This document shows positions 12,017-63,115 of a stretch of DNA of 64,000 bases, piece after piece. Positions within the stretch are counted from its first letter, which is position 1. Each line of letters opens with the position of its first letter. The notes below the pieces were generated by a model. The model did not search any database, was not told the DNA's origin, and worked only from the letters and a program-made list of their open reading frames with translations. A program made the translations under genes and the position numbers. Origin of the DNA: Buxus sempervirens (Eukaryota > Streptophyta > Magnoliopsida > Buxales > Buxaceae); contig OX387185.1 of NCBI GenBank assembly GCA_947561395.2, positions 22,759,866-22,823,865 on the forward strand, read 5' to 3'.

Positions 12017-12358
12017 CCTCCGAAGTGGCGGTTAAAATGAGATCACAATGAAAATCAACTCTTGCAGTTTCCCAAAAATTCCATAAAAATCTTGTAGTTC
12101 CCCAAAATCAAAACAAAACCTTATCTCCTTACCTCCGAAGTGGCGGTTGAAAAAGATTAATTTTCTCCCTTTACCTCCGAAGTGGCGGTTAAAAGGAATC
12201 CAACCTCCGAAGTGGCGGTCAAAACAAAATCTTACCTGCTTACCTCCGAAGTGGCGGTCAAAAAGAAGTCCTCACCTCCGAAGTAGCGGTTGAGGGAAAA
12301 TCATAACCTCCGAAATGGCGGTTCAAAATCTTCTTCCCTAACCTCCGAAGCGGCGGTT
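12017..12358 (+). repeat. ACCTCCGAAGTGGCGGTT repeats, unit 2
   Basis: Same eight copies as at 619-960. Confidence 0.85.
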
Positions 12359-12525
12359 AAAAAAAGGGAATCAAATAAAGAAAAATCATCACAGTTAATC
12401 TGCACAGACATGCATTATATTTCATTGCAATATGCATTCCTTATACTGACTTGTCTATTTTCAATCAAGGTACCAAGATTGCGTTTCGCAGTCCATACCT
12501 CCTACGTTCAAGAAGAAGATTACAG

Positions 12526-17705: not shown

Positions 17706-17950
17706 GTATCCGGTCATGTATACCGGATACACAGCCTCTCCTTCATATCCGGACATGAAGACCGGATATATGAAGATATTTCTGCAGGATTCGCGCCACT
17801 TGACCGACAAGCTCGCAGCGGCATTTAATTTTCAAATGATTGTGTTTGTATCCGGACTTGAAGACCGGATACAAAGGAGCCTTAGTGTATCCGGACTTCA
17901 AGTCCGGATACAAAGGAGCCTTAGTGTATCCGGACTTGAAGTCCGGATAC
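17706..17950 (+). repeat. U3 palindrome array, LTR 2
   Basis: Same five palindromes in the same spacing as at 6308. Confidence 0.9.
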
Positions 17951-17962
17951 ATTAAGTTTGCT

Positions 17963-47499: not shown

Positions 47500-47910
47500 T
47501 TGCTTTATCCGGAACCTGATTCTACCAAACTCAATTGCATCAAAATCGTGTCGGGATTTCCTATCCATTGGGATAGAGTGCGGCAGCTAAATCAGCTTTT
47601 GAGTAGAAGGTCGAAACTACTCCCTAGGATTTGATTCTGCCCATAACCCCTTCATCTGGACCCAGATTCTGGCAAATTCAGTTGTGCCATAATCATGTCA
47701 GAATTTCCTATCTGCTGGGATAGGGCATGGCAGTTGATTCAGGTTTGATCAGAAAGTCAATTTCTGCTCCCCCTAGGGTTTGAATTGCTCATAACTTCCT
47801 CATATGGACTTCGATTCTAGCAAATTCAGTTGCGTCAGAACCGTATCAGGATTTCCTATCCATTGGGATAGGGTATGACAGTCAATCTAGGTTTGATCAT
47901 AAAGTCAATT
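47500..47910 (-). repeat. Three ~145-bp direct repeats in U3 of the minus-strand LTR
   Basis: The blocks at about 47510, 47655 and 47800 each contain CCTATCNnTTGGGATAG and CAAAnTCAnTTGnnTCA. They are homologous to the two-copy repeat of the array LTR. Confidence 0.8.
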
Positions 47911-47980
47911 TCTGATCCCTAGGGTTTTGAGTTGTCTTTTAGGGTTCACTTCCGAGAGGTGCAAAAATGGGGTGCTTACA

Positions 47981-48340
47981 AGTGGCACCGAAGTCGCCGA
48001 CGGGTGAGTCTAGTTTGACTAAGGAATTGTCGGGTAATACTGGACAAAGTTTAGGGCACCAAGGTTACCGACGGGTGAGTCTGGTTTGACTAAGGAACAT
48101 CCTGGCATAGCCTACCCCAATTATTGGCGCTGAAGTCACCGACGGGTGAGTCTGGTTTGACTGAGGAACGTCCAAGTACTACTAGCCGAAGTTTAGGGCA
48201 CCAAGGTCACTGACGAGTGAGTTTGTTTTGACTAAGGAATGTCCTAGTATAGCCTACTCCAATCATGGCACCGAAGCCACCGATGGGTGAGTTTGGTCTG
48301 GCTGAGGAACAATTGGTGGGGCCGAAGCCGCTGACAAATG
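47981..48340 (+). repeat. GTCACC-GACG-GGTGA repeats of the old relic leader
   Basis: Six diverged copies with GGCACCGAAGTCACCGACGG and GTTTGACTAAGGAA. The core is a small hairpin with loop GACG whose arms co-vary: TCACC/GGTGA (48136-48149) and TCACT/AGTGA (48207-48220). The left end is cut by the minus-strand LTR. It belongs to the leader of the plus-strand relic whose gag is at 63116. Confidence 0.75.
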
Positions 48341-48465
48341 AGTCAGAGACATGTTGAGGTAAGCCCGGGTGCTGCTTTTTAGCTCACCCCCTACACAAAC
48401 CTGACCTAGTCCAACCCCGTGACACTGAGCTCAACCAAAAGCCCTCGTAATGAAGGTTATCTTCC
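48341..48465 (+). other. Relic leader, unique spacer
   Basis: Short spacer between the two repeat blocks; no gene or structure recognised. Confidence 0.5.
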
Positions 48466-49445
48466 CTTGTCGCGGTAAGGCAACTAAAATAGATCAGTAG
48501 GGTTCTCTTTCCCAGTTGCCTGCAGGTGACTAAAATAGATCAGTTTCAATAGGGTTCTCTTTCCCAATTGCCTACGGGTGACTAAAACAGATTAGTTCAC
48601 AAAAATAGGGTTCTCTCTCCCAGTTGCCTACGGGTGACTAAAATAGATCAAAAAATCGGGTTCTCTCTCCCAGTCACCTCCAAGTGGCTAAAATAGATCA
48701 GTCTTCATCATCAGGGTTCTCTTTCCCGGTTGCTTGCGAGGGACTAAAATAGATTAGATTCATAGGGTTCTCTTTCCTAGTTCCCTGTGGGTGACTAAAA
48801 CAGATAAGTTTCAATAGGCTTCTCTTTACCAATTGCCTACGGGTGGCTAAAACAGATCAGTTCACAAAAATAGGGTTCTCTCTCCCAGTTGCCTACGGGT
48901 GACTAAAATAAATCAGAAAATCGGGTTCTCTTTCCCAGTCACCTCCAAGTGGCTAAAATAGATCAGTTTTCATCATCAGGGTTCTCTTTCCTGGTTGCTT
49001 GTGGGTGACTAAAATATATTAGTTTCAATAGGGTTCTCTTTCCCAATTGCTTACGGGTGACTAAAACAGATCAGTTCACAAAAATAGGGTTCTCTTTCCC
49101 AGTTGCCAACGGGTGACTAAAATAGATCAGAAAATCGGGTTCTTTCTCCCAGTCACCTCCAAGTGGATAAAATAGATCAGTCTTCATCATTAGGGTTCTG
49201 TTTCCCGGTTGCCTGCAAGTGTCTCAAATAGATTATATTCATAGGGTTGTTTTTCTTAGTTGCCTACGGGTAACTAAAATAGATCAGATTCATAGGGTTC
49301 TCTTTCCCAGCCATCTCCGCGCAGCTAAAATAGATCAGTTCCAAATCGGGTTCTCTCCCCCCCCCCCCCCAGTCACCTCCAGGTGGCAAAAATAGATCAT
49401 GAAAAATCAAGTTCTCTTCCCTTGTTGCCTTTGGGCAACAAAAAC
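48466..49445 (+). repeat. AGTTGCC-TACG-GGTGACT hairpin repeats of the old relic leader (~19 copies)
   Basis: A 50-58 bp unit GGGTTCTCTTTCCC-hairpin-AAAATAGATCAG is repeated about 19 times. Hairpin variants keep pairing, with wobble: AGTTGCC/GGTGACT (48622-48639), AGTCAC/GTGGCT (48672-48689) and TGTTGCC/GGCAACA (49423-49440). The flanks AGGGTTCTC and AAAATAGATCAG are far more constant than the arms. A 14-C run lies near 49357. Confidence 0.82.
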
Positions 49446-49629
49446 AAATGAGTTAACCCAGTCTTAATCAGATCAAAAGGAGAAAACAACAAAAATGATG
49501 TATGAATAAATTGGTTCAACCAGACAAAGTGTAGACACCCCAAATTGCACTACAAAATGAGAAAATAATGAAAACATTAATTGGAATTTAAAACAGGCCA
49601 AAAATGCATGAAAATGAATAATTAGAGCC

Positions 49630-49736
49630 TGGACCGTATTGCCACTACGGGCTAAGCATGCCCGAATTTTGAATACGGGCACACAACGCCCGTAGTAAAT
49701 ATACGGACATCGTTGGACCGTAAATCATTTACGGGC
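49630..49736 (+). repeat. CCGTA/TACGG palindromes in U3 of the complete element
   Basis: Four hyphenated palindromes: CCGTATTGCCACTACGGG, TGCCCGAATTTTGAATACGG, CCGTAGTAAATATACGG and CCGTAAATCATTTACGGG. They lie upstream of the TATA box, like the unrelated palindromes of the array LTR. A second set lies in the leader at 52568-52700, and a copy at 59305-59411 in the 3' LTR. Confidence 0.85.
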
Positions 49737-49936
49737 ACTCTAGACTCGTGCGAGTTTTGATCTTCTCTCGATTTCTGAGCCTTATCCTTGGTCCAATATC
49801 CCTTTAAATGAGCAAATTATTTATTTTATTCGTGCGAAATATCTTTGTGCATAAAGGAGTGGCATGATCTTGTGTTTAACTCAAACTGAAACTCTATCTT
49901 GCCAAACCTTGGACCAACCATACCCCTGTGTTTGAA

Positions 49937-49944
49937 TATAAATA
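49937..49944 (+). promoter_or_regulatory. TATA box of the complete element, 5' LTR
   Basis: TATAAATA followed by GAGAGCC; expected start of transcription near 49970, about 70 nt before the splice donor. The 3' LTR copy is at 59612-59619. Confidence 0.82.
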
Positions 49945-50034
49945 GAGAGCCTTTCCTCAAGCAAAAGGCCACAAAAATTTGAAGTCCAAGGAGCTCCAAG
50001 AGAAGAGAGGAACCCCTGCTGCTCTGCTTGCTCA

Positions 50035-50046
50035 ATCCAGGTAAGT
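50035..50046 (+). promoter_or_regulatory. Predicted splice donor of the complete element
   Basis: AATCCAG|GTAAGT, a perfect plant donor, with the intron starting at 50041. With the acceptor at 54149 the intron would be 4,109 nt and would remove the PBS and the hairpin array. The 3' LTR copy starts at 59716. Confidence 0.75.
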
Positions 50047-51345
50047 CCCTTTTCCCTTTTATTTTATGTCTTCAATTCTAGATGTAATAGGATCATCTCT
50101 ATTGCTGTAGAATAAGGCCATCTTTTGTATCTAGTATTCCTAAACTTGCCTCTAAGTACCTCAAGAGTCTCTCTAGCCGTAAAACGTGAAGAGAGAGCTA
50201 GGGGAAAAGAGAACAGGTGGATCCCTAGAATAGAACCCCATATCTGTTTTTCTCCTCTTTTTTGTAGAATAAAGCCTGTGATTGTGTTTGTGTAACCAAA
50301 CCTATCTCCAAGTACCTCAAGAATCCTCTCTAGCCGTAAAACGTGAAGAGAGAGCTAGGGGAAAAGAGAATAGGTGGATCCGTAGGGTAGACCCCCATGT
50401 GCTCTAATCTGTGAGATGTGGTTGCTTTAAATATCTTGATCATGTTTTAATGGTTTTTATGATGAATCTGGATTAATCCTATGAATCCATGATGTTTATA
50501 GCATGCGATCCCCACTTTTTTTATAAAATTCAGATTTTTGCCACTTTTGCACCTACAGCACTGTTTTCGTGATTTTTGTGATTTTAGGCTAAGATCTTGG
50601 ATTTATCATGATCAATATGATAGATCTGGATCCAGAAGCCTGAAAGTAAACTCTAAGGTTTCATGATGTGGTTTTTAAATCGTTTTTCATTATTGAGAGA
50701 AGACCCTACGGTCTAAGTTCTCCCCTTTTGATGTTCTTCATCAACATGGGTATTTTTGGTTTTTATTTCTTGATTTAACGTGAAATTTGGGCTTTATCTA
50801 TGTCCTGGACGATTCAAGTTCAATTCTGAAATATTTTATAAAAATCATATTTTTCTAGATTTCTAGAATTTAACTTGAAGCCAGATTTTTGGATTTTTCA
50901 CTTTAAATTGATTTTATTTGATTTTATCTTAATTTTGTTTTGATCATGAAACCCTTGGAATGGTATGATCATATTTGAAAGTTCTGGATCAATCAGGCTA
51001 TTCATATGAAAAAACCATACAATTTTGTCTTTTTATGTGATTTTTCATGATTTTTATAGCAAGCCTTTTTTCTTTGTAAAACATGAACAATACCTGGCAA
51101 CCACCTTGTGTGGATGAATAGGGGTGCCTAACACCTTCCCCTGTTCATAACCTAATCCCCTTACCCATCTCTGGTTGTTTTTTTAGGAGGGTTATTTTTA
51201 CCCTAAAATTGCCTTTTGTGCTTATTTAATATTTTGGTGTCCATTAACACCTAAATTGAATGGTGGCGACTCTTTGTTTTATTTTAATCCCGTGTGATGA
51301 TTGTGGAAGTCAAAGGATTTTTGATTTTTTCCCATGTCTCACAAC

Positions 51346-51363
51346 TGGCGACTCTGCTGGGGA
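51346..51363 (+). other. Primer binding site of the complete element
   Basis: TGGCGACTCTGCTGGGGA two bases after the LTR end; two changes from the array site. Confidence 0.88.
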
Positions 51364-52560
51364 CTTGAGGATTTCAGCCTTTTTGGTGTTTGTTCATGTT
51401 TTTGATTTTTTTGATTTGCTTGCTATTTTGTGTTCTTAAGCATATTGAGTATGTTTTAAATCTGAATTATTGCTTAAGAATTCATGAGGGTAGAAACATG
51501 CTTAATTCTGATATATAGGATTGTTTCTACAAACATGCGTAGGGGAAGTCCGTTTTGCTGAACCATGCTTATTTTTTGCTATATTTTCATAATAGCATGT
51601 TTTAATTTTCAGCATGATCTCCATGATGATTTTTGGTGTATAACATGATCATATGTTTGCATGATTAGATGATTTTTTTTATGAGCATGTTTTAGGTGCT
51701 ATAGGATTGCTGTATTTACTTGTTTATTTCAAATATGCTTTCTTATTATGCCTTGGTTTGTTTATGCATGGCTACGAAAAGAGTGGCAAGGGTTTGGGAC
51801 GTTGTGAATGCACCCTATTTTTACAATGCACTGTGCACCTTTTATTTTTTACACAGCCTACCCTTAACCTATAGGAAGTTGAACACGAATGTGTGTAGCT
51901 TGGCCCAACGAGGTCGATACTTCGGAAAGTGAAAGTGAAAACATTCACCTTAAAACTTTGAGCTAATGATGTGATGATAACGTGGATCTGGGATTCTGGT
52001 CATCACTAGGCTTGAGTGCTAAGTTGCCATTAAGCCAAAACCCAAAGCCCCTACGCTTGAAGGTGGAGTTACACGTTTTTTTGGCTAAAATACACAATTA
52101 CGTGGGAATATAGGTTTGTAATTGTGGGAAGGCCGTTTGCATGGCTTACAAACCAGGGCATAATGCGGATGCCATATTGAAGGTAAACAAGGTAACAAGG
52201 TAATCCTATTCTTCTACATTATTTTCATGTCATAGGGGAGTCATGGTGCCCATTGGTTTGGAATAAATTGGTCCCAAAATATGCACGTTTCTAAAATTGG
52301 TGCAGCCCATAGGAAGAGTTTCTAACTCTGTTTAGAATCAACCCTACCCAATGTTCATGCAAGAGTCAACAAAAGGGTACCAAATCCTTGAGTATGGTGT
52401 CAATTTGGAGGGTAAATGTGCCCTCCCAAGCATGTGTTTTTACAAATAGGCCAAGGTCCACTTTGGGACAGTTTAGAAGCCTTGCACTGGGTGAACCGTA
52501 TGTTTGGATGAGCAATTAAAGTGATCAAACCATGAAAAAATTGAGAAAACATAAAAGAGC
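51364..52560 (+). other. Leader of the complete element, no gene
   Basis: T-rich non-coding leader. Short frames such as 51720-51932 have no conserved features. Nothing resembling the array leader beyond the PBS was recognised. Confidence 0.7.
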
Positions 52561-52567
52561 TCCGTAA

Positions 52568-52700
52568 AACCGTATTTGATACACGGACTGGGCTCGCCCG
52601 TATTAGTTATACGGGCTGGGTTCGCCCGTGAATTTCATACGGTCACGGCTCGCTCGTAATTTGAATACGGGCAGGGCTGGAACGTACTGTATATACGGTT
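52568..52700 (+). repeat. CCGTA/TACGG palindromes in the leader of the complete element
   Basis: About five copies: CCGTATTTGATACACGG, CCCGTATTAGTTATACGGG, CCCGTGAATTTCATACGG, CTCGTAATTTGAATACGGG and CGTACTGTATATACGG. They are the same family as the U3 palindromes of this element, some 2.9 kb away. Confidence 0.82.
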
Positions 52701-52832
52701 TTCGCGGAAAACTCAATTTTAATCAGTTTTTCCCACTAAATATTATTCCTTTAACCTTTAAATAATGATAAAGGGAAATGAGTTTGAATAAAATGCTTCC
52801 AAAAAAAAATATGTGAGAGAAAATCCTTTGGA

Positions 52833-54004
52833 CCTCTGAAAGCCTTTGAATTTCAGACTTTTTCTCAAAACTCCTTGGGCCTATGAAAGCCTTTGAATTT
52901 CAGAATTTTTCACAAAAATCCTATGGGCCTCTGAAAGCCTTTAAATTTCAGACTTTTTCTCAAAAACTCTTTGGGCCTCTGGAAGCCTTTAAATTTCAGA
53001 CTTTTCCTCAAAAATCCTTTGGGCCTCTGAAAGCCTTTAAATTTCAGACTTTTCCTCAAAAATCCTTTGGGCCTCTGAAAGCCTTTGAATTTCAGACATT
53101 TTCTCAAAAATGTCCTTGGGCCTCTGAAAGCCTTTGAATTTCAGATCTTTTGGGCCATTTGAAAGCCTCTGAATTTCAAACATCCATTTCATCTTTGGGC
53201 CGTCTAAAAGCCTCTGAATTTTAGACAAATCATATCCTTTGGGCGGTCTAAAAGCCTCTGAATTTTAGACAAATCATTTCTTTGGGCCTTCTAAAAGCCT
53301 CTGAATTTTATACAATCATTTTTTTTGGGCCGTCTATAAGCCTCTAAATTATAGACACATATCCTTTGGGCCGTCTAAAAGCCTCTGAATTTTAGACAAT
53401 CATATCCTTTGGGCCGTCTAAAAGCCTCTGAATTTTAGACAATCATATCCTTTGGGCCGTCTAAAAGCCTCTGAATTTTAGACAAATCATTTCTTTGGGC
53501 CGTCTAAAAGCCTCTGAATTTTAGACAATCATTTTTTTGGGCCGTCTATAAGCCTCTGAATTATAGACACATATCCTTTGGGCTGTCTAAAAGCCTCTGA
53601 ATTTTAGACAAATCATATTCTTTGGGCCGTCTAAAAGCCTCTGAATTTTAGACAATCATTTCTTTGGGCCATCTAAAAGCCTCTGAATTTTAGACAAATC
53701 ATTTCTTTGGGCCGTCTAAAAGCCTCTGAATTTTAGACACAACCTTTTTGGGCCGTCTATAAGCCTCTGAATTATAGACACATATTCTTTGGGCCGTCTA
53801 TAAGCCTCTGAATTATAGACACATATCCTTTGGGCCTCTGAAAGCCTTTGAATTTCAGACTTTTTTCAAAAATATCCCTGGGCCTCTGAAAGCCTTTGAA
53901 TTTCAAACTTTTTCCAAAAATTTCTTTGGGCCTCTGAAAGCCTTTGAATTTCATATCTTTTTCTCTTTTTGTGGGACCTGTTGGAAGCCCTAGAATATTC
54001 CAAC
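52833..54004 (+). repeat. GCCTCTGAA-loop hairpin array (~25 copies) with co-varying stems
   Basis: Repeats of 40-60 bp. The loop GCCTCTGAA or GCCTTTGAA is kept while the arms change together: TCTGAAA/TTTCAGA (53026-53048), TTTGAAA/TTTCAAA (53158-53180), GTCTAAAA/TTTTAGAC (53416-53440), GTCTATAA/TTATAGAC (53544-53568) and a last GTTGGAA/TTCCAAC (53980-54004). Spacers are TTGGGCC and T-rich stretches. The array lies inside the predicted intron, upstream of gag. Frames on both strands here are repeat artefacts. Confidence 0.9.
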
Positions 54005-54125
54005 AATTCAAAAAAAAAAAAAAGAAGGAAAAGAAGCAAATAAAGAAAGAAACAAATTCAAACTCGTGTTCACCCAGCTTGCACATAGGCATACATAGGC
54101 ATGTGAATGAGATTAAATTGGCACT

Positions 54126-54150
54126 GATATTTTCTCTTTATTTTTCCAGG
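54126..54150 (+). promoter_or_regulatory. Predicted 3' splice acceptor before gag of the complete element
   Basis: A strong pyrimidine tract and CAG: TTTTCTCTTTATTTTTCCAG, then GTACCAAG. It lies 54 nt before the gag ATG at 54204. GTACCAAG after the AG is shared with the array. Confidence 0.75.
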
Positions 54151-54203
54151 TACCAAGTACACTTGCAACCATAGCTCTTGTAACCAGATCAAGAGCTCGC
54201 GCC

Positions 54204-55820
54204 ATGAATCCCATTGAGACTGAAGCTGATGCTCCTCACCCAGATATTGTCTTGTTTCAAGAACAAGTGGCAGGACTAGCCCGAATGCTCGAAAACATAC
54301 TATCAGTGCAGGCCCAACAAGTGCAAGCCTAGAATCAAGCATCCACTTCCAACTCAGCACCTCCACCCCAAATCAATATCCCACCTCCGGTTCAACCTAT
54401 TCCTGAACCCATTTATGAACCCACCCCTGAACCTATACTGATCAGGGATGAGACAGTTGAGTCTGAGAAAGAAAAGGAAAAAGAAAAAATGAGGGAAGAA
54501 ATGGAGAAGAAATTCATGCACCGACTGGAGATGATCCAAGATGAACTAAGGGAGGTAAAAGGGGTGAATAACTTTGGAGGCACCAATTTCGAAGATTTGT
54601 GCCTATACCCTGATGTATGTCTACCGGCCAAGTTTAAATGCCCAGATTTCGATAAATATGATGGCACTGGCTGCCCAATGAGCCATTTGAAGTTGTACTA
54701 TGGTGCCCTATGCCAATTTGGCCGGGATGACGGCATACTAATTCAACTATTTCAGAGGAGTTTAACTGGAGCTGCTTTGAGGTGGTTTACCACTTTAGAT
54801 CATGGGAAAATAAGAAGGTGGAAGGATTTAGCAGATTCCTTTTTGGCACAATACAAGTTTAACTCGGAGATCGTGCCAGACCGGTATGACATGATGAGGA
54901 TGACAAAGAGAAATGATGAGACCATAAGGAAATATGCTAAAAGGTGGAGGGAGTTGGCTGCACAAGTCAAGCCACCCGTGGGAGAACCAGAAATGATTTC
55001 AACTTTCATCATGACATTGGGTCAACCATTTTACAGTCACTTTGTGGGTCAAACTACCACCAACTTTGCTGCCCTAGTGCAAGTGGCAAACAGAATTGAA
55101 GATGGGATCAAGTCTGGGAAAATAGCTGATTACTCTGCAGTGTTGAACCAGGAAGCTTCCACCACTTTCTCTACATAGAAAAAGGAGAATGGTAATGAAA
55201 GAATAAAGAATGAAGAAAGGAGAGAAGCAAAAGTGAATATGGTACAACTTCCCAGGGAACCCTTCCAAATCAATGCCCATCCACCTCCTATCAAGCCAAC
55301 CCATCAATTTCCTTTGCTGCCTATTCAAATTAATGTCCCTTTTGCACAGCCTGCGAAGGAGGAAACAGAAGTAAGGAAGAGAAGGGAATTTTCTAAACTG
55401 CCTATGAGACCATCTGAGCTTTTGCCTACTTTACTTCAAAAGGGTTATGTGACTTTGAGGTTGCCAAATCCTCATGCAAGCAAGGGGAAGAATTATAATT
55501 CATCTGCAATCTGTGATTATCATATGAGCACTCCAGGGCATACCACAGATCGTTGCTTGGCCCTAAAGCATGCAATCCAAGATTTGTTGGATAATAACTC
55601 CTTATCATTTAATTTAGTTACACCCATCCCACCTACCGATAACAATGGGGCAGGCAGCTCAAATGCAATATTGGCAATTTTCTCTGGAGAAAGAAGATTT
55701 GACCCTTCTCAGCTTATCGCTCTTATTGGTCTAACAGTCAGGGTTTATCTTGAAAGAAATGCTCCTAGTTATGAGCAGGAAGGCTTGCCTCACTCAGCAA
55801 GAGAAAGAAATTATATGTAA
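54204..55820 (+). pseudogene. gag: Gag of the complete element, interrupted by two amber codons
   Basis: A single frame runs from ATG 54204 to the stop at 55820 (538 codons), broken only by TAG at 54330-54332 (codon 43) and TAG at 55176-55178. A short acidic N-terminus and a Pro/Glu-rich part precede a Lys/Glu coiled-coil-like stretch (about codons 85-115). The core starts at FKCPDF (codon 144) and includes FQRSL, RRWKDL, KYAKRWREL, TLGQPF and RIEDGIKSG. The zinc knuckle CDYHMSTPGHTTDRC begins at codon 437, followed by LALKHAIQDLLDN. No frameshift was seen. Both stops are one C-to-T change from CAG. Not functional as a full Gag unless ambers are read through. Confidence 0.88.
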
Positions 55821-56604
55821 AAGGGAGAAAAGTCAACTTTTGCCTTTGAGAACAGGGGCAGTTTTCGAACTCCCATGTTCTCTGAAAAGAAACCTGCATA
55901 AGAAGAATGCACATTTCCTGAGGATCTTAGGGAGCCTTGTTCTCAGGAAGTGATTTCAATAAAGGCTCTTCCAAAACAAAAAAAAAAAAGATTTTCCCCT
56001 TTAACATTTTTCTAGAAAAAAAAAGTTTTCAATAAGGTCCTTTTACTTATGAATCATATCTCTTATTGAATTTCATTGAGTTGAATATGACTTTGACATT
56101 GGGCTCAATTTTGAGACCAAAATCGAAGAAAAAGACATTTTATGTGAAAATTCAAATTTTTTTAAGTGTCATGAGAAGAATATTCTGCAAAATTATGAAA
56201 TGACCAATTTTATGGCCTTTGGAACCAAAGATGACCCACAGTCTTCAACAGAAAGATAGAAGAAGATTTGAAGTTCCTTCATTATAATTCAGAAAAGGAT
56301 TGCACCACTTGCTGATTCGTTCAAAGGGAGGTTGATAATATTGTTTGAAGAAATTTTGGGGCTTTGCACTTGAAAATATGGGAGAAGATTTGACATTTTC
56401 GTTGGAAATAGAATTGGGCATTATTTGATGGAAAGAATCCAAATTCATAAGATTGATCAAAAAATGAAGAACTTGTTCATAACAGAAGTTCTATTTGAAG
56501 AGGCTTTTATCTTGATAGAAGTTGATTTAAAAGGAAGAAGAAAAAATTCCTGAACTAGTCATGTAGTACAACTTTACCAAGTCTGAAAATTCAAACTTTT
56601 CCTA

Positions 56605-56735
56605 AAATGATAAGAGGCCTTTCTTTCTTATATCCCCAACAATTTTGAAATCCCTAGTTAAACCCTTTGAACTTGATACATTTTTCCAAGTAAACTAAAC
56701 TGAGAATTGTAACCCCACACTGGGGCAAATTTATT
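56605..56735 (+). other. Conserved non-coding module A in the complete element
   Basis: GATAAGAGGCCTTTC, ATCCC(T)AGTTAAACCCTTTGA, ACTTGAT and CCCCACACTGGGGCAAA (hairpin 56713-56725) follow the order seen in the array at 3230-3360. Confidence 0.75.
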
Positions 56736-57029
56736 AAGGCATAAAAAAAAGGAATGAAGGAACAATTGGGATTTTGAATATGTTTTCAGAAAAGGGGACA
56801 AAGAAAAAAAAGGAAAAAGAAAAAAGAAGAAGGAAGAAAAAGAGCTCATCAAATGATATGGGATATTTGGAGAATGTCTTCAAAATTGTGAAGAAAAGAA
56901 TGGAAAAAAGAAGTTCAATACTGGAGAATAAGTTTCAAATGAAGAAATCAAATTGAAAGAAGAACTTCATTACTGGGGGCAATTTTGTATTCATTCCAAA
57001 GGAAAAAATGCCTTAAAAATTACAATTTC

Positions 57030-57150
57030 AGTTAACCCATTTGATCATAGGGTATTTGAGCCTTTTATTCCTTTTCTTTCTAAACTAACACCAAGCCTTC
57101 GTTTCGTCCTATTCATAAGTCCTCTTTGATTAAGAAATTTTGAATTAAGA
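57030..57150 (+). other. Conserved non-coding module B in the complete element
   Basis: AACCCATTTGA, TTTGAGCC, ATTCCTTTTCTTTC, CCAAGCCTTCGTTTCGTCCT and AAGTCCTCTTTGATT match the array at 3830-3925. Confidence 0.75.
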
Positions 57151-58640
57151 CAGTTTTGACTACATGGTTGATGGTGATGAAGGATAAAAAAAAAGAAAAA
57201 AGAAAAAAAAAGAAGAAAAAAGAAAAAAAAAAAGAAAAAGGAAAAAAATGGAGAAAATGTAGTGAAACCCCGGAAAGGCACTACATGGCAAATAATCAGC
57301 TATCTACAAGAAGGAAATTGTCAGAGAGGAAAGTCCAGAATTGGTATAGATCCAAATGAAGTCCTCATATTGGAGGTTATTTTGAGATACAGTCACTCTT
57401 CAAGTGATTGAGGAAAATTCTCTTTTCAAGACTGAAGCAACATAATCAGAACTATGATATGAATCATCTGTGAACAAGTTAATGGCCATCAAAATTGCCA
57501 TTAGAAAATTGTTGCTGAAGTTGAAGTCATAAATTCTCATACCATGGATACAATGGAGAAACAATTGCTCTTCAATTGGATGAAGGAAAATGTATTTCTA
57601 GACTAGGGCAAAAGAGTCAGATTGAAAGAATCATCATATCTAGAGCATCAATTGACAAGCCGATGGTCATGGGAATGATTCTAAAGGTTCCAAAGGCTTA
57701 TTTTGGTCTTTCTTCATTTTCTGAAATAATCTTCTCATTATTCAACTTGATTTTAATTCTTTTGGACTATATGCTAATAAGTGATTGGATCAATTTTCAA
57801 AAAAAATCAAAACACAAAAAAAGGCAAAAACTATATTTTTGGCATATGATGAGAATCTATATCTTTTCATAAAACATTGGTTTTACAAGCATTAGAGAAT
57901 TCTGAGGCCACTAGTATAAAACATATTTTCTTATGTTTGCATTTGCATTCTTCTATTAGGGTTTCTTTTTGGCAAAGGTAAAAAAAAAAAGAAAAAAGAA
58001 AAAAAAAGAGAAAAAGAAAATAAGGAAAAAAAAAGAAAAAAAGGAAAAAAAAGAGAAAAAGGAAAAAAGAGGATCATCTCTACTGAGGGGCAAATACCTC
58101 TTCAAACAATCAAAACCGGGGCATGCTCAGTGTCTTTCCTTCTGGGTTTTCATTGGAATGAATTCCAACATCTGGAAGAAGTAATCAAGCTTTAGTCTTC
58201 GAATTTGAAAGAAAAAAAAGGCTTCGAAGCAATTGCATGTTTTCTCTGTTAAACAAGGGTTCCCAATTCTTCAATCATGAAGAAGGATTTTACTGGGGCA
58301 GCAAGAAGGCATGAAAGACAGATCATGGGTTGTAAAGGCATGAGGTTAGATCAACAGATCATGATCCATCAATCAAGATGAGGGCATTCACTTGGGCAAT
58401 TAAAAAGCATGAAGACAGGTTATGGGCAGTAAGGGCACATACATCGTTATTGAGAGAGCAAGAAGATAAAGAAGCAAAAGCAAGTTGCAGAATATTCAAG
58501 CACAGGTTCGGGCATCAAATGACACCCAGGTATATCAAATAAGAAAATCAATCAGGAAAATTAAAAAAGCGAAAAACATCAAAATCAATTGAATTTGCAA
58601 TGGTCAATTTTAAATCCACATTCTTTTCAAAATTTGCTTG

Positions 58641-58686
58641 TCTCAGATTTCTTTTCATAGCCACGAGAGCTCCAAGAAATCTGAGA
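58641..58686 (+). repeat. 13-bp perfect inverted repeat around a repeated loop
   Basis: TCTCAGATTTCTT (58641-58653) and AAGAAATCTGAGA (58674-58686) enclose TTCATAGCCACGAGAGCTCC. The loop sequence TTTCATAGCCACGAGAGCTC recurs near 58992 with a shorter CTCA/TGAG pairing, again a constant loop with different arms. Confidence 0.8.
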
Positions 58687-59168
58687 TAAGGAAGAGACGC
58701 CACCCCATCAGACTTCAAGCAGGGGTTTCATTGGCTATCTTCAAATCCATGTTTTTTATCACTCATTTTTTGACCAAAGCAAGTGCAATTAATGAGAAGT
58801 TTTTCAAATGTGCAATTTTGAGTTGTGTTTGTTCTTTGCTGTTCATTATGTTATAACTGCAGGCCACCCAGAAAAATTGTCTTTTTTATTATTTTCTCCA
58901 CACTTTTTAGGAGATCAATGTCTATATTAGTTGTAAGTTGCAAAGATTGCCATCTTACCCACTTTGTTTAAAAATTTTGTCTCAAATCTCATTTCATAGC
59001 CACGAGAGCTCAGTGAGAGGATAGAGGAGGATTTGGCCTTTAAGTTGAGGGACTTCTAGCAAATCTTCCACAATAAATCCTTTTTCATCCATTCAATCCT
59101 TGCAAAATGCAATTAGTTAGACAAAGATCTCAAAAAGTGCAATTGGTGGGACTTTTTGCTCTCTGCTT

Positions 59169-59186
59169 GTAATTGGTTCCAATTAC
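59169..59186 (+). repeat. Palindrome next to the polypurine tract
   Basis: GTAATTGG-TT-CCAATTAC, a perfect 8-bp stem with a 2-nt loop, four bases before the purine run. Confidence 0.75.
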
Positions 59187-59190
59187 CAGC

Positions 59191-59204
59191 AAAGAGGGGG
59201 CAGC
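59191..59204 (+). other. Polypurine tract of the complete element
   Basis: AAAGAGGGGGCAGC directly before the 3' LTR. Confidence 0.9.
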
Positions 59205-61017
59205 TGTAGACACCCCAAATTGCACTACAAAATGAGAAAATAATGAAAACATTAATTGGAATTTAAAACAGGCCAAAAATGCATGAAAATGAATAATTAG
59301 AGCCTGGACCGTATTGCCACTACGGGCTAAGCATGCTCGAATTTTGAATACGGGCACACAGCGCCCGTAGTAAATATACGGACATCGTTGGACCGTAAAT
59401 CATTTACGGGCACTCTAGACTCGTGCAAGTTCTGATCTTCTCTCAATTTCTGAGCCTTATCCTTGGTCCAATATCCCTTTAAATGAGCAAATTATTTATT
59501 TTATTCGTGCGAAATATCTTTGTGGATAAAGGATTGGCATGATCTTGTGTTTAACTCAAACTGAAACTCTATCTTGCCAAACCTTGGACCAACCATACCC
59601 CTATGTTTGCCTATAAATAGAGAGCCTTTCCTCAAGCAAAAGGCCACGAAAATTTGAAGTCCAAGGAGCTCCAAGAGAAGAGAGGAACCCCTGCTGCTCT
59701 GCTTGCTCAATCCAGGTAAGTCCCTTTTCCCTTTTATTTTATGTCTTCAATTCTAGATGTAATAGGATCATCTCTATTGCTGTAGAATAAGGCCATCTTT
59801 TGTATCTAGTATTCCTAAACTTGCCTCTAAGTACCTCAAGAGTCTCTCTAGCCGTAAAACGTGAAGAGAGAGCTAGGGGAAAAGAGAACAGGTGGATCCC
59901 TAGAATAGAACCCCATATCTGTTTTTCTCCTCTTTTTTGTAGAATAAAGCCTGTGATTGTGTTTGTGTAACCAAACCTATCTCCAAGTACCTCAAGAATC
60001 CTCTCTAGCCGTAAAACGTGAAAAGAGAGCTAGGGGAAAAGAGAATAGGTGGATCCGTAGGGTAGACCCCCATGTGCTCTAATCTGTGAGATGTGGTTGC
60101 TTTAAATATCTTGATCATGTTTTAATGGTTTTTATGCTGAATCTGGATTAATCCTATGAATCCATGATGTTTATAGCATGAGATCCCCACTTTTTTATAA
60201 AATTCGGATTTTTGCCAATTTTGCACCTACAGCACTGTTTTCGTGATTTTTGTGATTTTAGGCTAAGATCTTGGATTTATCATGATCAATATGATAGATC
60301 TGGATCCAGAAGCCTGAAAGTAAACTCTAAGGTTTTATGATGTGGTTTTTAAATCGTTTTTCATTATTGAGAGAAGACCCTACGGTCTAAGTTCTCCCCT
60401 TTTGATGTTCTTCATCAACATGGGTATTTTTGGTTTTTATTTCTTGATTTAACGTGAAATTTGGGCTTTATCTATGTCCTGGACGATTCAATTTCAATTC
60501 TGAAATATTTTATAAAAATCATATTTTTCTAGATTTCTAGAATTTAACTTGAAGCCAGATTTTTGGATTTTTCACTTTAAATTGATTTTATTTGATTTTA
60601 TCTTAATTTTGTTTTGATCATGAAACACTTGGAATGCTATGATCATATTTGAAAGTTCTGGATCAATCAGGCTATTCATATGAAAAAACCATACAATTTT
60701 GTCTTTTTATGTGATTTTTCATGATTTTTATAGCAAGCCTTTTTTCTTTGTAAAACATGAACAATAACTGGCAACCACCTTGTGTGGATGAATAGGGGTG
60801 CCTAACACCTTCCCCTGTTCATAACCTAATCCCCTTACCCATCTCTGGTTGTTTTTTTAGGAGGGTTATTTTTACCCTAAAATTGCCTTTTGTGCTTATT
60901 TAATATTTTGATGTCCATTAACACCTAAATTGAATGGTGGCGACTCTTTGTTTTATTTTAATCCCGTGTGATGATTGTGGAAGTCAAAGGATTTTTTATT
61001 TTTTCCCATGTCTCACA
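59205..61017 (+). repeat. 3' LTR of the complete element (1,813 bp)
   Basis: Same ends as the 5' LTR, directly after the polypurine tract. Differences include TTTGCCTATAAATAG instead of TTTGAATATAAATAG and one base less in a T run near 60193. Confidence 0.93.
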
Positions 61018-61022
61018 CAAAG

Positions 61023-61245
61023 AAAGGAAAACTACAAGATAAAGTTGTGTAAAACTGCACTAATGCCTGTTATTAGTTCTAACAGATACCAAAATTGCTT
61101 TCAGAAACCCGTACCTGCTAAGATCAAGGAAAAGACTTGAAATGGATTAGCAAGGGAATCAGACACCGCCAGGCCAACATTTGGCAAAGTCTAGTCAGAC
61201 ACAAGTCGTTAACAACATGCAACATAAAATTGATAGCATGGGTAC
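61023..61245 (+). mobile_element. Relic leader segment between two insertions
   Basis: This continues the host sequence interrupted at 49529: CAAAG plus AAAGGAAAACTACAAG. It ends with GGTAC, the target site of the solo LTR. It should be the part of the old element between its repeat leader and its gag. No gene is visible. Confidence 0.7.
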
Positions 61246-62211
61246 TGTGCGCACGTGGGCGCACGATGTCGTGCCCGACTTTCCGTGGATTTTTCTTTGG
61301 TTTCGGGGAGTTTCCACTGTTCATTGTTAAGGGTGTGAATAGTCACCCAATTTTTGATTTTTGATTTATGTGCATGGTCTACCTAGAGACTTTGGATAAG
61401 TGGTTCGGTTGTAACCCAGGGAAGTCCATGGACACCTTGAGTTACCCCGCAAGATAATGGGTTCCCATTATACGGAATTTAGGCAAGTTGACTCGATTAA
61501 CTTGTGTGTGGGCTTCCCAACTCATATGACAGCAAATAGGTGAGGCACATGAAGTACCAAAATTAGCGGTAAAACCCAAAGTATGTGCGTGTACATGAGC
61601 GGACACTAACAAACCCAATCAAGATGACTTACCATGACTTCCCGGCAAGGTATATACAAACTGAACTTGGGGTACCTTAGGGGAGTGGGAGCATACTTGA
61701 ACAGCGGATATTCAAGAAAGAAAATGACATGCTAAAGATGCCAAACAATGGCTACATGTTAAGGGGGAAGAGAGCATGCATGTGGGATCCTTAAACATGT
61801 ACACATATGTTTTATGGGATTTAAAACATGCTGAAATCAAGTTCTAAAACATGCTAAGACTAGCTATTCTGAAGATAAAAAAACAAGCATGAGAAGGGAT
61901 AAAGGGGCTTATGAAAAGGGTTACAAAAGATGGTCAAGCAAGAGGGAACATGCTCCCTCATCGAATAAGAAAAAGAAGCATACAAAACAGTAATCTCAAA
62001 AGACCCAAAAGTGTGTGGAAAACCTCTCATTCTCCCGTGGAGTTACACGTATGCTCCCTCTTACCTTGGGAGACTTTCACATGATGAAAATGGAAAGAAA
62101 AACACATGAAAACTATGTTGAAAAACCAATTTGAACAAAATGGGGACAAGGCTTTCTAAACATTACAAAATACTCCCATTCTTACATATATGATGTACAA
62201 GGAGATAGGAA

Positions 62212-62224
62212 ACATTACCTTGGG
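62212..62224 (-). promoter_or_regulatory. Predicted splice donor in the solo LTR
   Basis: Minus strand CCCCCAAG|GTAATG with the intron from 62218. The preceding TTCCAGCAACTGTCC and ATCAAGGGAGG align with the array sequence before its donor. Confidence 0.62.
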
Positions 62225-62493
62225 GGTTTAAAAGCCCTGGAATAGTGTGTGTGACCTCCCTTGATGCTAGGACAGTTGCTGGAAGCCCTCCTCCTCAACC
62301 TTCCAACAAGTTCACAAGCTCTTTTTTCACTTGGATTCTAGAGGAAAGGACCAAGAAGGGGTGTTTAAGGAGGTTAAAGGGGCTTTGAAGGCTTGAGGGT
62401 GGTAAACAAAGGTGGTTCGAAGGCTCAGGCAGTAGAGAGGAGGTGTAGGAAGCAGTAAAAACCAACCAACCCCTGTCTACTATTTGGATTTTC

Positions 62494-62501
62494 TATTTAT
62501 A
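62494..62501 (-). promoter_or_regulatory. TATA box of the solo LTR
   Basis: Minus-strand TATAAATA, about 280 nt before the donor, as in the array LTR. Confidence 0.75.
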
Positions 62502-62516
62502 GAACACAGAGACAAA

Positions 62517-62721
62517 ACTGCACATGCAGTGCGGTTCGGCCACGTCTTTTCAGCATTAAACAGGGGACAAATTGGCGTAGGTGCAGACTGACGAAAAGTC
62601 AACCGCACTTACAGTGCGGTTGCTTTTCATCCACCGCCCGTTGTGATTGGCTCGCGCAAACGGTGGCCGAAAAAATCAACTGCACTCTATATGTGGTCGC
62701 GAAGCGACCGCATATAGTGTG
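62517..62721. repeat. U3 palindromes of the solo LTR
   Basis: ACTGCACATGCAGT (62517-62530); arms GAAAAGTCAACCGCACT and CAGTGCGGTTGCTTTTC (62593-62628, one bulged base); arms CACTCTATATGTGGTCGC and GCGACCGCATATAGTGTG around GAA (62683-62721). The arms are unrelated in sequence to those of the other LTRs but hold the same place upstream of TATA. Confidence 0.85.
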
Positions 62722-63115
62722 TGGTCGCGGCAAATCTTTCATATTTGCCTTTTTCTCTCCCCCTTTTGCTTGAGTTGACAGTTGAGGTGATTCAGCTGCC
62801 CACTCGAGCGAATCAAATTCCTCCGATTTATATATATTTTTATTATTATTTTCCATTTATCTTAGCTAGTTTAATTAAGACATTTTAAACTTTGACTGAT
62901 TTGCCCCTGGGACTGTTTTGCTCATATCTTTTCCATCCGGGCTCAGATTCACGCAAACTTAATTGCGTTGAAACCATGTCAGGATATTCTACCCATTGGG
63001 ATAGGGTATAGCAATCAATTTGGGTTCAGGTAGAAAGTCACTTTCTGCTCCTTAGGGTTTTGTTGTTTTTTAGCACATTTTTTGGTTTGATCAAAATTTG
63101 GGTGCTTATAGGTAC

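What the first reader, a model, noticed from the sequence alone, without database searches (positions are those of the whole stretch)
52833..54004. A second, unrelated hairpin array built on the same rule in the complete element
The loop GCCTCTGAA/GCCTTTGAA is kept and at least five different stems all pair: TCTGAAA/TTTCAGA, TTTGAAA/TTTCAAA, GTCTAAAA/TTTTAGAC, GTCTATAA/TTATAGAC, GTTGGAA/TTCCAAC. The sequence is unrelated to CATTTCGT, but the position (leader, before gag) and logic are the same. This suggests convergent or fast-diverging evolution of loop-reading arrays.
Basis: seen in the sequence. Interest (0 to 1): 0.9.

Follow-up and report, generated by a model that had tools for sequence, protein, structure and literature searches.

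The report
Hairpin array in a retrotransposon leader
A high-copy plant retrotransposon carries about 27 near-identical small hairpins just before its gag gene, inside what looks like an intron, so that the array would mark the full-length genome RNA and be absent from the messenger RNA that makes Gag.

Summary
The array is real: 27 hairpin units at 52829-54005. All 20 copies fetched for their gag gene, not for the array, carry it (18-36 units). Stems fall into three homogenised types (A, B, C), a rare F and an end unit D, and the loop mostly follows the type. A genome pattern search found no hairpin with the exact GGGCC and loop and another closing pair. Cores differ from their type by 0.6-0.9% per site; the next 180 bases differ by 6.3%.

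The new point is location. A TATA box is followed by CAG|GTAAGT in the LTR (9 of 9 copies covering it), and a 3' splice site lies 54 nt before the gag ATG (AG in 51 of 52 copies where found). The spliced leader would lack ATGs; the intron holds 79, and the whole array. A second gag family in the window has the same plan and a third has part of it, each with an unrelated array. Best reading: a tag for unspliced genomic RNA, probably read by Gag. Splicing, folding in the cell and Gag binding are inferred, not shown.

The parts
49530..51343 (+). 5' LTR of the element
   Evidence: 98.7% identical to 59205-61017 over 1814 aligned positions; flanked by CAAAG at 49525-49529 and 61018-61022
49937..49945 (+). 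TATA box-like TATAAATAG in the LTR
   Evidence: TATA-to-donor distance 104-115 nt in the 9 covering copies
50038..50046 (+). predicted 5' splice site CAG|GTAAGT (intron starts 50041)
   Evidence: highest plus-strand donor score in the window, equalled only by the 3' LTR copy (matrix recalled); identical in the 9 of 14 fetched upstream stretches that cover it
50041..54149 (+). predicted leader intron (rest of LTR, PBS, leader, array), about 4.1 kb, 79 ATGs
   Evidence: inferred from splice signals, no transcript data
51346..51363 (+). primer-binding-site-like sequence just after the LTR
   Evidence: position only; tRNA not tested
52829..53146 (+). first A block: 7 units, stem TCTGAAA/TTTCAGA (one mismatch, one G-U), loop GCCTTTGAA or GCCTTTAAA
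53152..53181 (+). unit F: stem TTTGAAA/TTTCAAA
53197..53820 (+). 15 B/C units: stems GTCTAAAA/TTTTAGAC and GTCTATAA/TTATAGAC, loop GCCTCTGAA in 14 of 15 (one unit with a mismatch, one with the outer pair lost)
53831..53956 (+). second A block, 3 units (two with a mismatch)
53974..54005 (+). end unit D: stem GTTGGAA/TTCCAAC, loop GCCCTAGAATA
   Evidence: last unit in 35 of 37 arrays and 19 of 20 gag-chosen copies
54122..54149 (+). predicted branch point (CACTGAT; consensus recalled) and 3' splice site (pyrimidine tract, CAG|GTACCAAG)
   Evidence: found with the gag ATG in 52 of 56 fetched copies, AG in 51 of 52 (search motif included the AG, 4 substitutions allowed)
54150..54203 (+). predicted exon 2 before gag, 54 nt, no ATG
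54204..55820 (+). gag (Retrotrans_gag E 8.7e-13); in-frame TAG at 54330 and 55176 in this copy
   Evidence: longer open frames in other copies
59205..61017 (+). 3' LTR

Best explanation
The array is a multivalent RNA tag for the element's unspliced genomic RNA. Transcription starts in the LTR. A donor about 75-85 nt downstream can be spliced to an acceptor 54 nt before gag, giving a short, ATG-free leader from which Gag is made. The array and the PBS lie in the removed intron, so only the full-length RNA keeps them. The repeated hairpins (two A-T closing pairs plus a loop of the GCCYYTGAA kind) offer about 18-43 similar binding sites. The most likely reader is the element's own Gag, selecting genomes for the particle. 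Shown by sequence: the hairpins, their conservation, their order, and conserved splice signals.
For: Array present in 20 of 20 copies fetched by gag (20 of the 150 listed matches). Order A..B/C..A..D broadly kept while unit number varies 18-36 (L063 has no B/C units). Core deviation 0.88/0.94/0.58% per site (5' arm/loop/3' arm, 519 units) against 6.3% in the 180 nt after the array in the same copies; first set 0.75-1.2% against 3.6-7.3% in LTR, leader and gag pieces. Where both arms fit one of the four types exactly, the types agree in 846 of 878 units, 322.6 if arms were independent (shared descent contributes to this). CAG|GTAAGT in 9 of 9 copies covering the site; AG in 51 of 52; exon 1 without ATG in 9 of 9 and exon 2 in 51 of 52, against 79 ATGs in the window intron. 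The 11.4-kb family repeats the plan: TATA 17963, donor 18255, acceptor 12468-12469 one repeat unit upstream, no ATG in either exon, with its own array of 32 hairpins of 5 bp and 8-nt loop where 2.05 are expected. A third family has an array followed by an acceptor 56 nt before its ATG. Parallel: BARE makes Gag from a spliced RNA and packages another RNA pool (PMC3735527, passages).
Against: No transcript, structure-probing or binding data. Free folding puts 14 of 27 units in the named hairpin, and the fold is not more stable against shuffles than that of the LTR. Stems of one type are homogenised, so covariation rests on about four paired changes. Recent single changes do not avoid breaking pairs (C>T giving G-U 21, G>A giving mismatch 21 in the 25 listed kinds), as expected for decay after insertion. 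Spacers of type C are also nearly uniform apart from a few positions, so some of the low variation is homogenisation. D is not only an end unit: 6 of 37 arrays also have it inside.
Confidence: 0.42

Rival explanations
1. Export or intron-retention element: the array keeps the leader intron unspliced or carries the intron-containing RNA out of the nucleus by binding host proteins, as RTE and MTE do for mouse retroelements.
For: Same location argument. IAP and MusD carry structured transport elements (PMC12786077, passages). An element that depends on an unspliced RNA needs such a step.
Against: Rfam gives nothing above threshold. Three different arrays in one host fit element-specific reading better than one host reader.
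Confidence: 0.22
2. No function of its own: a palindromic unit amplified by unequal exchange or reverse-transcriptase template switching, with paired changes made in one step by hairpin-templated correction.
For: Stems are a few homogenised types and each paired change seems to have few origins. Tandem repeats are common and family-specific in related plant elements (PMC7004042, PMC11963269, passages).
Against: Cores carry less variation than spacers of the same units, clearly for types A and B, and than gag itself. The array was in all 20 gag-chosen copies and ends in the same unit in 19. Different arrays sit in the same slot in other families.
Confidence: 0.22
3. The units act as DNA: sites for a host DNA-binding protein or chromatin factor.
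For: The GGG before the stem is conserved as sequence together with the core; cores are near-palindromes on both strands.
Against: Array 3 forms its stems through G-U pairs that exist on the sense strand only (7 against 1.0 expected sense, 1 against 1.4 antisense). All three arrays lie inside the predicted transcript.
Confidence: 0.08
4. Dimer linkage: self-complementary units of two genomic RNAs pair in trans to bring two genomes together.
For: Palindromic arms can pair between units, and only about half of the units fold on themselves in the whole-array fold.
Against: Mixed stem types in one array would weaken register; a single site usually suffices in retroviruses (recalled).
Confidence: 0.06

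Closest known systems
Retroviral packaging signal (psi)
   Same: Leader hairpins upstream of gag, downstream of a splice donor, hence only in unspliced RNA; shared loop motifs (recalled)
   Different: A tandem array of about 18-43 units; the donor lies in the LTR and the intron removes the PBS; Gag itself would come from the spliced RNA; no binding shown
Multiple dispersed packaging signals of RNA viruses (PMC6281560, passages)
   Same: Many stem-loops share a short recognition motif
   Different: Here they are clustered in one tandem array and stems are homogenised
BARE distinct RNA pools (PMC3735527, passages)
   Same: Plant LTR element with a spliced Gag-only RNA and a separate packaged RNA
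   Different: BARE splices out 104 nt near the end of gag; no leader intron or hairpin array in the passages seen
Tandem repeats of Ogre and Retand elements (PMC7004042, PMC11963269, passages)
   Same: Family-specific tandem arrays inside plant Gypsy elements
   Different: Those lie mostly between pol and the 3' LTR; this one lies between PBS and gag and is made of hairpins
TR-GAG elements (definition recalled; name seen in the listing)
   Same: LTRs plus gag, no pol seen
   Different: This one is 11.5 kb with a 2.9-kb leader; sizes of TR-GAG elements were not looked up

Membership tests
Retroviral-type packaging signal | Lies downstream of the splice donor so that it is missing from spliced RNA | tested here: inconclusive
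   Predicted intron 50041-54149 contains the array; signals conserved in copies; no RNA data
Retroviral-type packaging signal | Specific binding by Gag | not testable with these tools
   No binding data; Gag has a Cys/His knuckle-like stretch (recalled motif) in 55179-55817 that Pfam does not recognise
Multiple dispersed packaging signals | Stem-loops sharing a recognition motif | tested here: met
   22 of 27 units have a perfect 7-bp stem, with related loops; that the motif is recognised is not tested
Multiple dispersed packaging signals | Dispersed over the genome | tested here: not met
   Units clustered at 52829-54005
Ogre/Retand 3' tandem repeats | Array between pol and 3' LTR | tested here: not met
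   Array lies upstream of gag
Tat/Ogre clade | RT/aRH phylogeny | not testable with these tools
   No pol seen in the element; affinity rests on Gag motifs that are recalled
TR-GAG (definition recalled) | LTRs, gag, no pol | tested here: met
   window copy only; minus-strand frames after gag were not scanned
Rfam RNA family | Match above gathering score | tested here: not met
   Two sub-threshold hits outside the array in 47900-61100

The most novel reading that the evidence does not exclude
A class of plant Gypsy elements separates messenger from genome by a leader intron that starts in the LTR. In that intron each family keeps its own multicopy hairpin code, read by its own Gag. The codes turn over quickly between families while the slot is inherited, so that each Gag packages its own genomes and not those of its relatives.
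Probability: 0.25. Interest if true: 0.85.

Novelty: new variant of a known kind. Interest (0 to 1): 0.62.

Why it matters
How plant LTR retrotransposons tell their genome RNA from their messenger RNA is largely open; [quoted passage not shown] A conserved, countable hairpin array in a predicted intron, with two different counterparts beside it, makes the question testable with RNA sequencing and simple binding assays. It would also show one way in which tandem repeats are kept in mobile elements by constraint rather than drift.

Tried and rejected
Loop constant with stems free: a genome pattern search for the exact GGGCC and loop with a closing pair other than A-T gave 3 matches; I fetched 121 bases around each and none forms a hairpin in that register, one of them lying inside an ordinary A-type array.

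Pseudoknot (GGGC before the stem pairing with GCC of the loop): geometry fits and the end unit keeps GGG/CCC, but variants show no compensation by eye, and in the CATTTCGT array the equivalent AAAT/ATTT is missing from several units (by eye). Left open, not claimed.

Strong thermodynamic signal: not found. A general hairpin count (stem 6 or more, loop 3-12) stood out for array 1 (23 against 5.5) but not for arrays 2 and 3 (2 against 3.9, 2 against 1.9). Those two exceed shuffles only at fitted sizes (array 2 also at stem 5, loop 3-12: 32 against 11), so the parameters are post hoc.

Other searches: viral contigs 0 matches for two patterns; Rfam nothing above threshold. Other gag families by foreign Gags (P0002, P0003) and by the 11.4-kb family's Gag: not completed, so the survey of families stops at the three in the window. 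Enod40 paper on stem-loops from mobile elements (PMC10578108, passages): no match to this. In print: the searches listed no title or abstract start on a hairpin array upstream of gag in an LTR retrotransposon; only listings and the named passages were read, and the library holds open-licence papers only.

Full report
What is there. Window 49530-61017 is an LTR element: LTRs of 1.8 kb, 98.7% identical, target-site repeat CAAAG on both sides, a PBS-like sequence at 51346, and a gag gene from 54204 (Retrotrans_gag, E 8.7e-13; six relatives, one named Eucalyptus globulus). This copy's gag has in-frame stops at 54330 and 55176. In the genome search with this Gag, 9145 candidates were seen and the best 150 scored (92-100% identical); by eye most of these rows show an open frame of 570 aa or more. 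No pol was seen: after gag, the plus-strand frames of at least 80 aa are 80-115 aa long, with no retroelement domain; minus-strand frames there were not scanned.

The array. 27 units lie at 52829-54005. A unit is GGGC(C), a 7-8 bp stem, a 9-nt loop, the second arm, and a spacer. In order: seven A units (one mismatch, one G-U), F, fifteen B and C units mixed, three A units (two with a mismatch), D. A 143-base piece of the array matched 142 places in the host genome, which I grouped by hand into 38 loci; 36 besides the window were fetched. In these 37 arrays I counted 1100 units, 23-43 per array. Units were found by loop motif (2 mismatches allowed) and GGGC (1 allowed), so very divergent units would be missed; 21 of 1063 spacings are 55 nt or more. 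These copies were chosen by array similarity; the 20 copies were chosen by gag alone from the list. All 20 carry 18-36 units; 19 end in D and one has D followed by a single further hit; the acceptor was found in 19, each with AG. Of the 37 first arrays, 35 end in D, one has a hit after D and one (L010) has no D; 6 have a further D inside.

Is the pairing real and constrained? In the window's units three covariation measures beat all 500 shuffles and the slid controls; two others do not clearly (details in the observation check). In 33 arrays (four near-duplicates dropped: L035, L042, L043, L044; 980 units) both arms fit a type exactly in 878, and the types agree in 846, against 322.6 if arms were independent; common descent of whole units contributes to this. 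Core deviation is 0.88% (5' arm), 0.94% (loop) and 0.58% (3' arm) in 519 units of the 20 gag-chosen copies (D and poorly fitting units left out), against 6.3% in the 180 nt that follow. In the first set it is 0.75-1.2% (938 units), against 3.6% (leader start, 13 rows), 5.3-5.4% (other leader pieces, 24 and 30 rows; LTR, 9 rows) and 7.3% (gag start and pre-gag, 28 and 32 rows). Cores were compared with the nearest of four types, which lowers their figure somewhat; the loop was not used for typing. Among spacers of the commonest length, several columns of type A vary in 32-44% of units, type B up to 22%, and type C hardly beyond one column. So cores are constrained beyond unit homogenisation for A and B; for C the case is weaker.

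Paired changes are few: A/B at pair 4 (G-C to A-T), B/C at pair 3 (A-T to T-A), A/F at pair 6 (C-G to T-A; 8 units in 7 of 37 arrays), and the end stem. All 8 double changes scored in 1054 units are A to F. Loop and stem type are linked. No hairpin with the exact GGGCC and loop and another closing pair was found. Whole-array folding is not dominated by the hairpins.

Location: a predicted leader intron. In the LTR, TATAAATAG (49937) is followed by CAG|GTAAGT (50041), the highest plus-strand donor score of the window, equalled only by its 3' LTR copy (matrix recalled). Of 14 upstream stretches fetched, 9 cover this site by alignment and all 9 have CAGGTAAGT and an ATG-free exon 1, in LTRs 83-90% identical to the window's; exon 1 is taken to start 30 nt after the TATA box. 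The acceptor (CACTGAT, pyrimidine tract, CAG) lies 54 nt before the gag ATG. It was found together with that ATG in 52 of 56 fetched copies, with AG in 51 and no earlier ATG in 51 (the motif searched includes the AG). The spliced leader of the window copy would be about 128 nt without ATG; the intron has 79 ATGs. So Gag is plausibly made from the spliced RNA, and the unspliced RNA is the genome. No RNA data were available.

Same plan elsewhere in the window. The 11.4-kb elements (tandem period 11398 bp; array region identical in the copies compared) have the CATTTCGT array: 45 units used, three CATATC.T places left out; stems GAAGC/GCTTC, GAAAC/GTTTC, GAAGT/ACTTC, GAAAT/ATTTC; covariation 0.086 against 0.026, but pairs with a two-sided change 3 against 1.6, p 0.15. 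They have TATA 17963, donor 18255, acceptor 12468-12469 (in the unit upstream), exon 2 of 56 nt and no ATG in either exon. Their Gag is 47% identical to this one over 107 aa. A third family was hit by this element's insertion: its array (48503-49460, 18 units) precedes the insertion, and its acceptor (CTAACAG|ATACCAAA, 61084-61085) and ATG (61142) follow it, 56 nt apart; that ATG is followed by a stop two codons on, and no donor was looked for (read by eye). The array-3 stems are weaker evidence: 7 against 1.0 expected on the sense strand and 1 against 1.4 on the antisense; paired cells and covariation do not clearly exceed shuffles (p 0.22 and 0.08). The three arrays share no sequence that I could see by eye.

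Mechanism. Shown by sequence: a hairpin array in every gag-chosen copy sampled, conserved and ordered; conserved splice signals that place it in an intron; the same plan in one further family and part of it in a third. Inferred: that splicing happens; that hairpins form in the RNA; that the array serves selection of the unspliced RNA; that Gag reads it. Export or retention is the main functional rival, and homogenised junk the main null.

Literature. BARE makes a spliced Gag-only RNA and packages a different RNA pool (PMC3735527, passages). Ogre elements splice between gag-pro and RT (PMC6317226, passages). Tandem repeats of Ogre and Retand lie mostly 3' of pol (PMC7004042 and PMC11963269, passages and the latter's abstract). 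RNA viruses can use many stem-loops with one motif (PMC6281560, passages). C. elegans Cer1 needs a protein to export unspliced RNA (PMC10309623, title and abstract start in the listing). I found no description of a pre-gag hairpin array in the listings.

Noticed in passing
1-42847: An 11,398-bp LTR element stands in tandem (repeats about 99.7-99.8% identical), with its own pre-gag CATTTCGT hairpin array in each unit.
   Followed up: partly
17847-17951: Tandem 39-bp units with palindromes (TGTATCCGGACTT...AAGTCCGGATACA) lie directly upstream of the TATA box of the 11.4-kb element: a possible promoter or silencing feature.
   Followed up: no
48503-49460 and 61018-61144: The element is inserted in the leader of a third gag family, splitting that family's array from its acceptor and gag start.
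   Followed up: partly
61246-63112: By eye, a further LTR-like insertion appears to split the gag of the third family (GGTAC-like repeated ends); a gag-like stretch follows from about 63113.
   Followed up: no
49635-49735 and 52570-52680: CGGGC/GCCCG-type repeats occur both early in the LTR and just before the hairpin array.
   Followed up: no
12020-12370: A second repeat set (ACCTCCGAAGTGGCGGT) between the CATTTCGT array and the acceptor could also form short hairpins.
   Followed up: no
G000: The 14 contigs whose lengths were shown add up to 666 of the stated 676.5 Mb, yet numbers such as C2, C5, C7 and C13 are missing from the size-ordered series; the genome may be held in part only.
   Followed up: no
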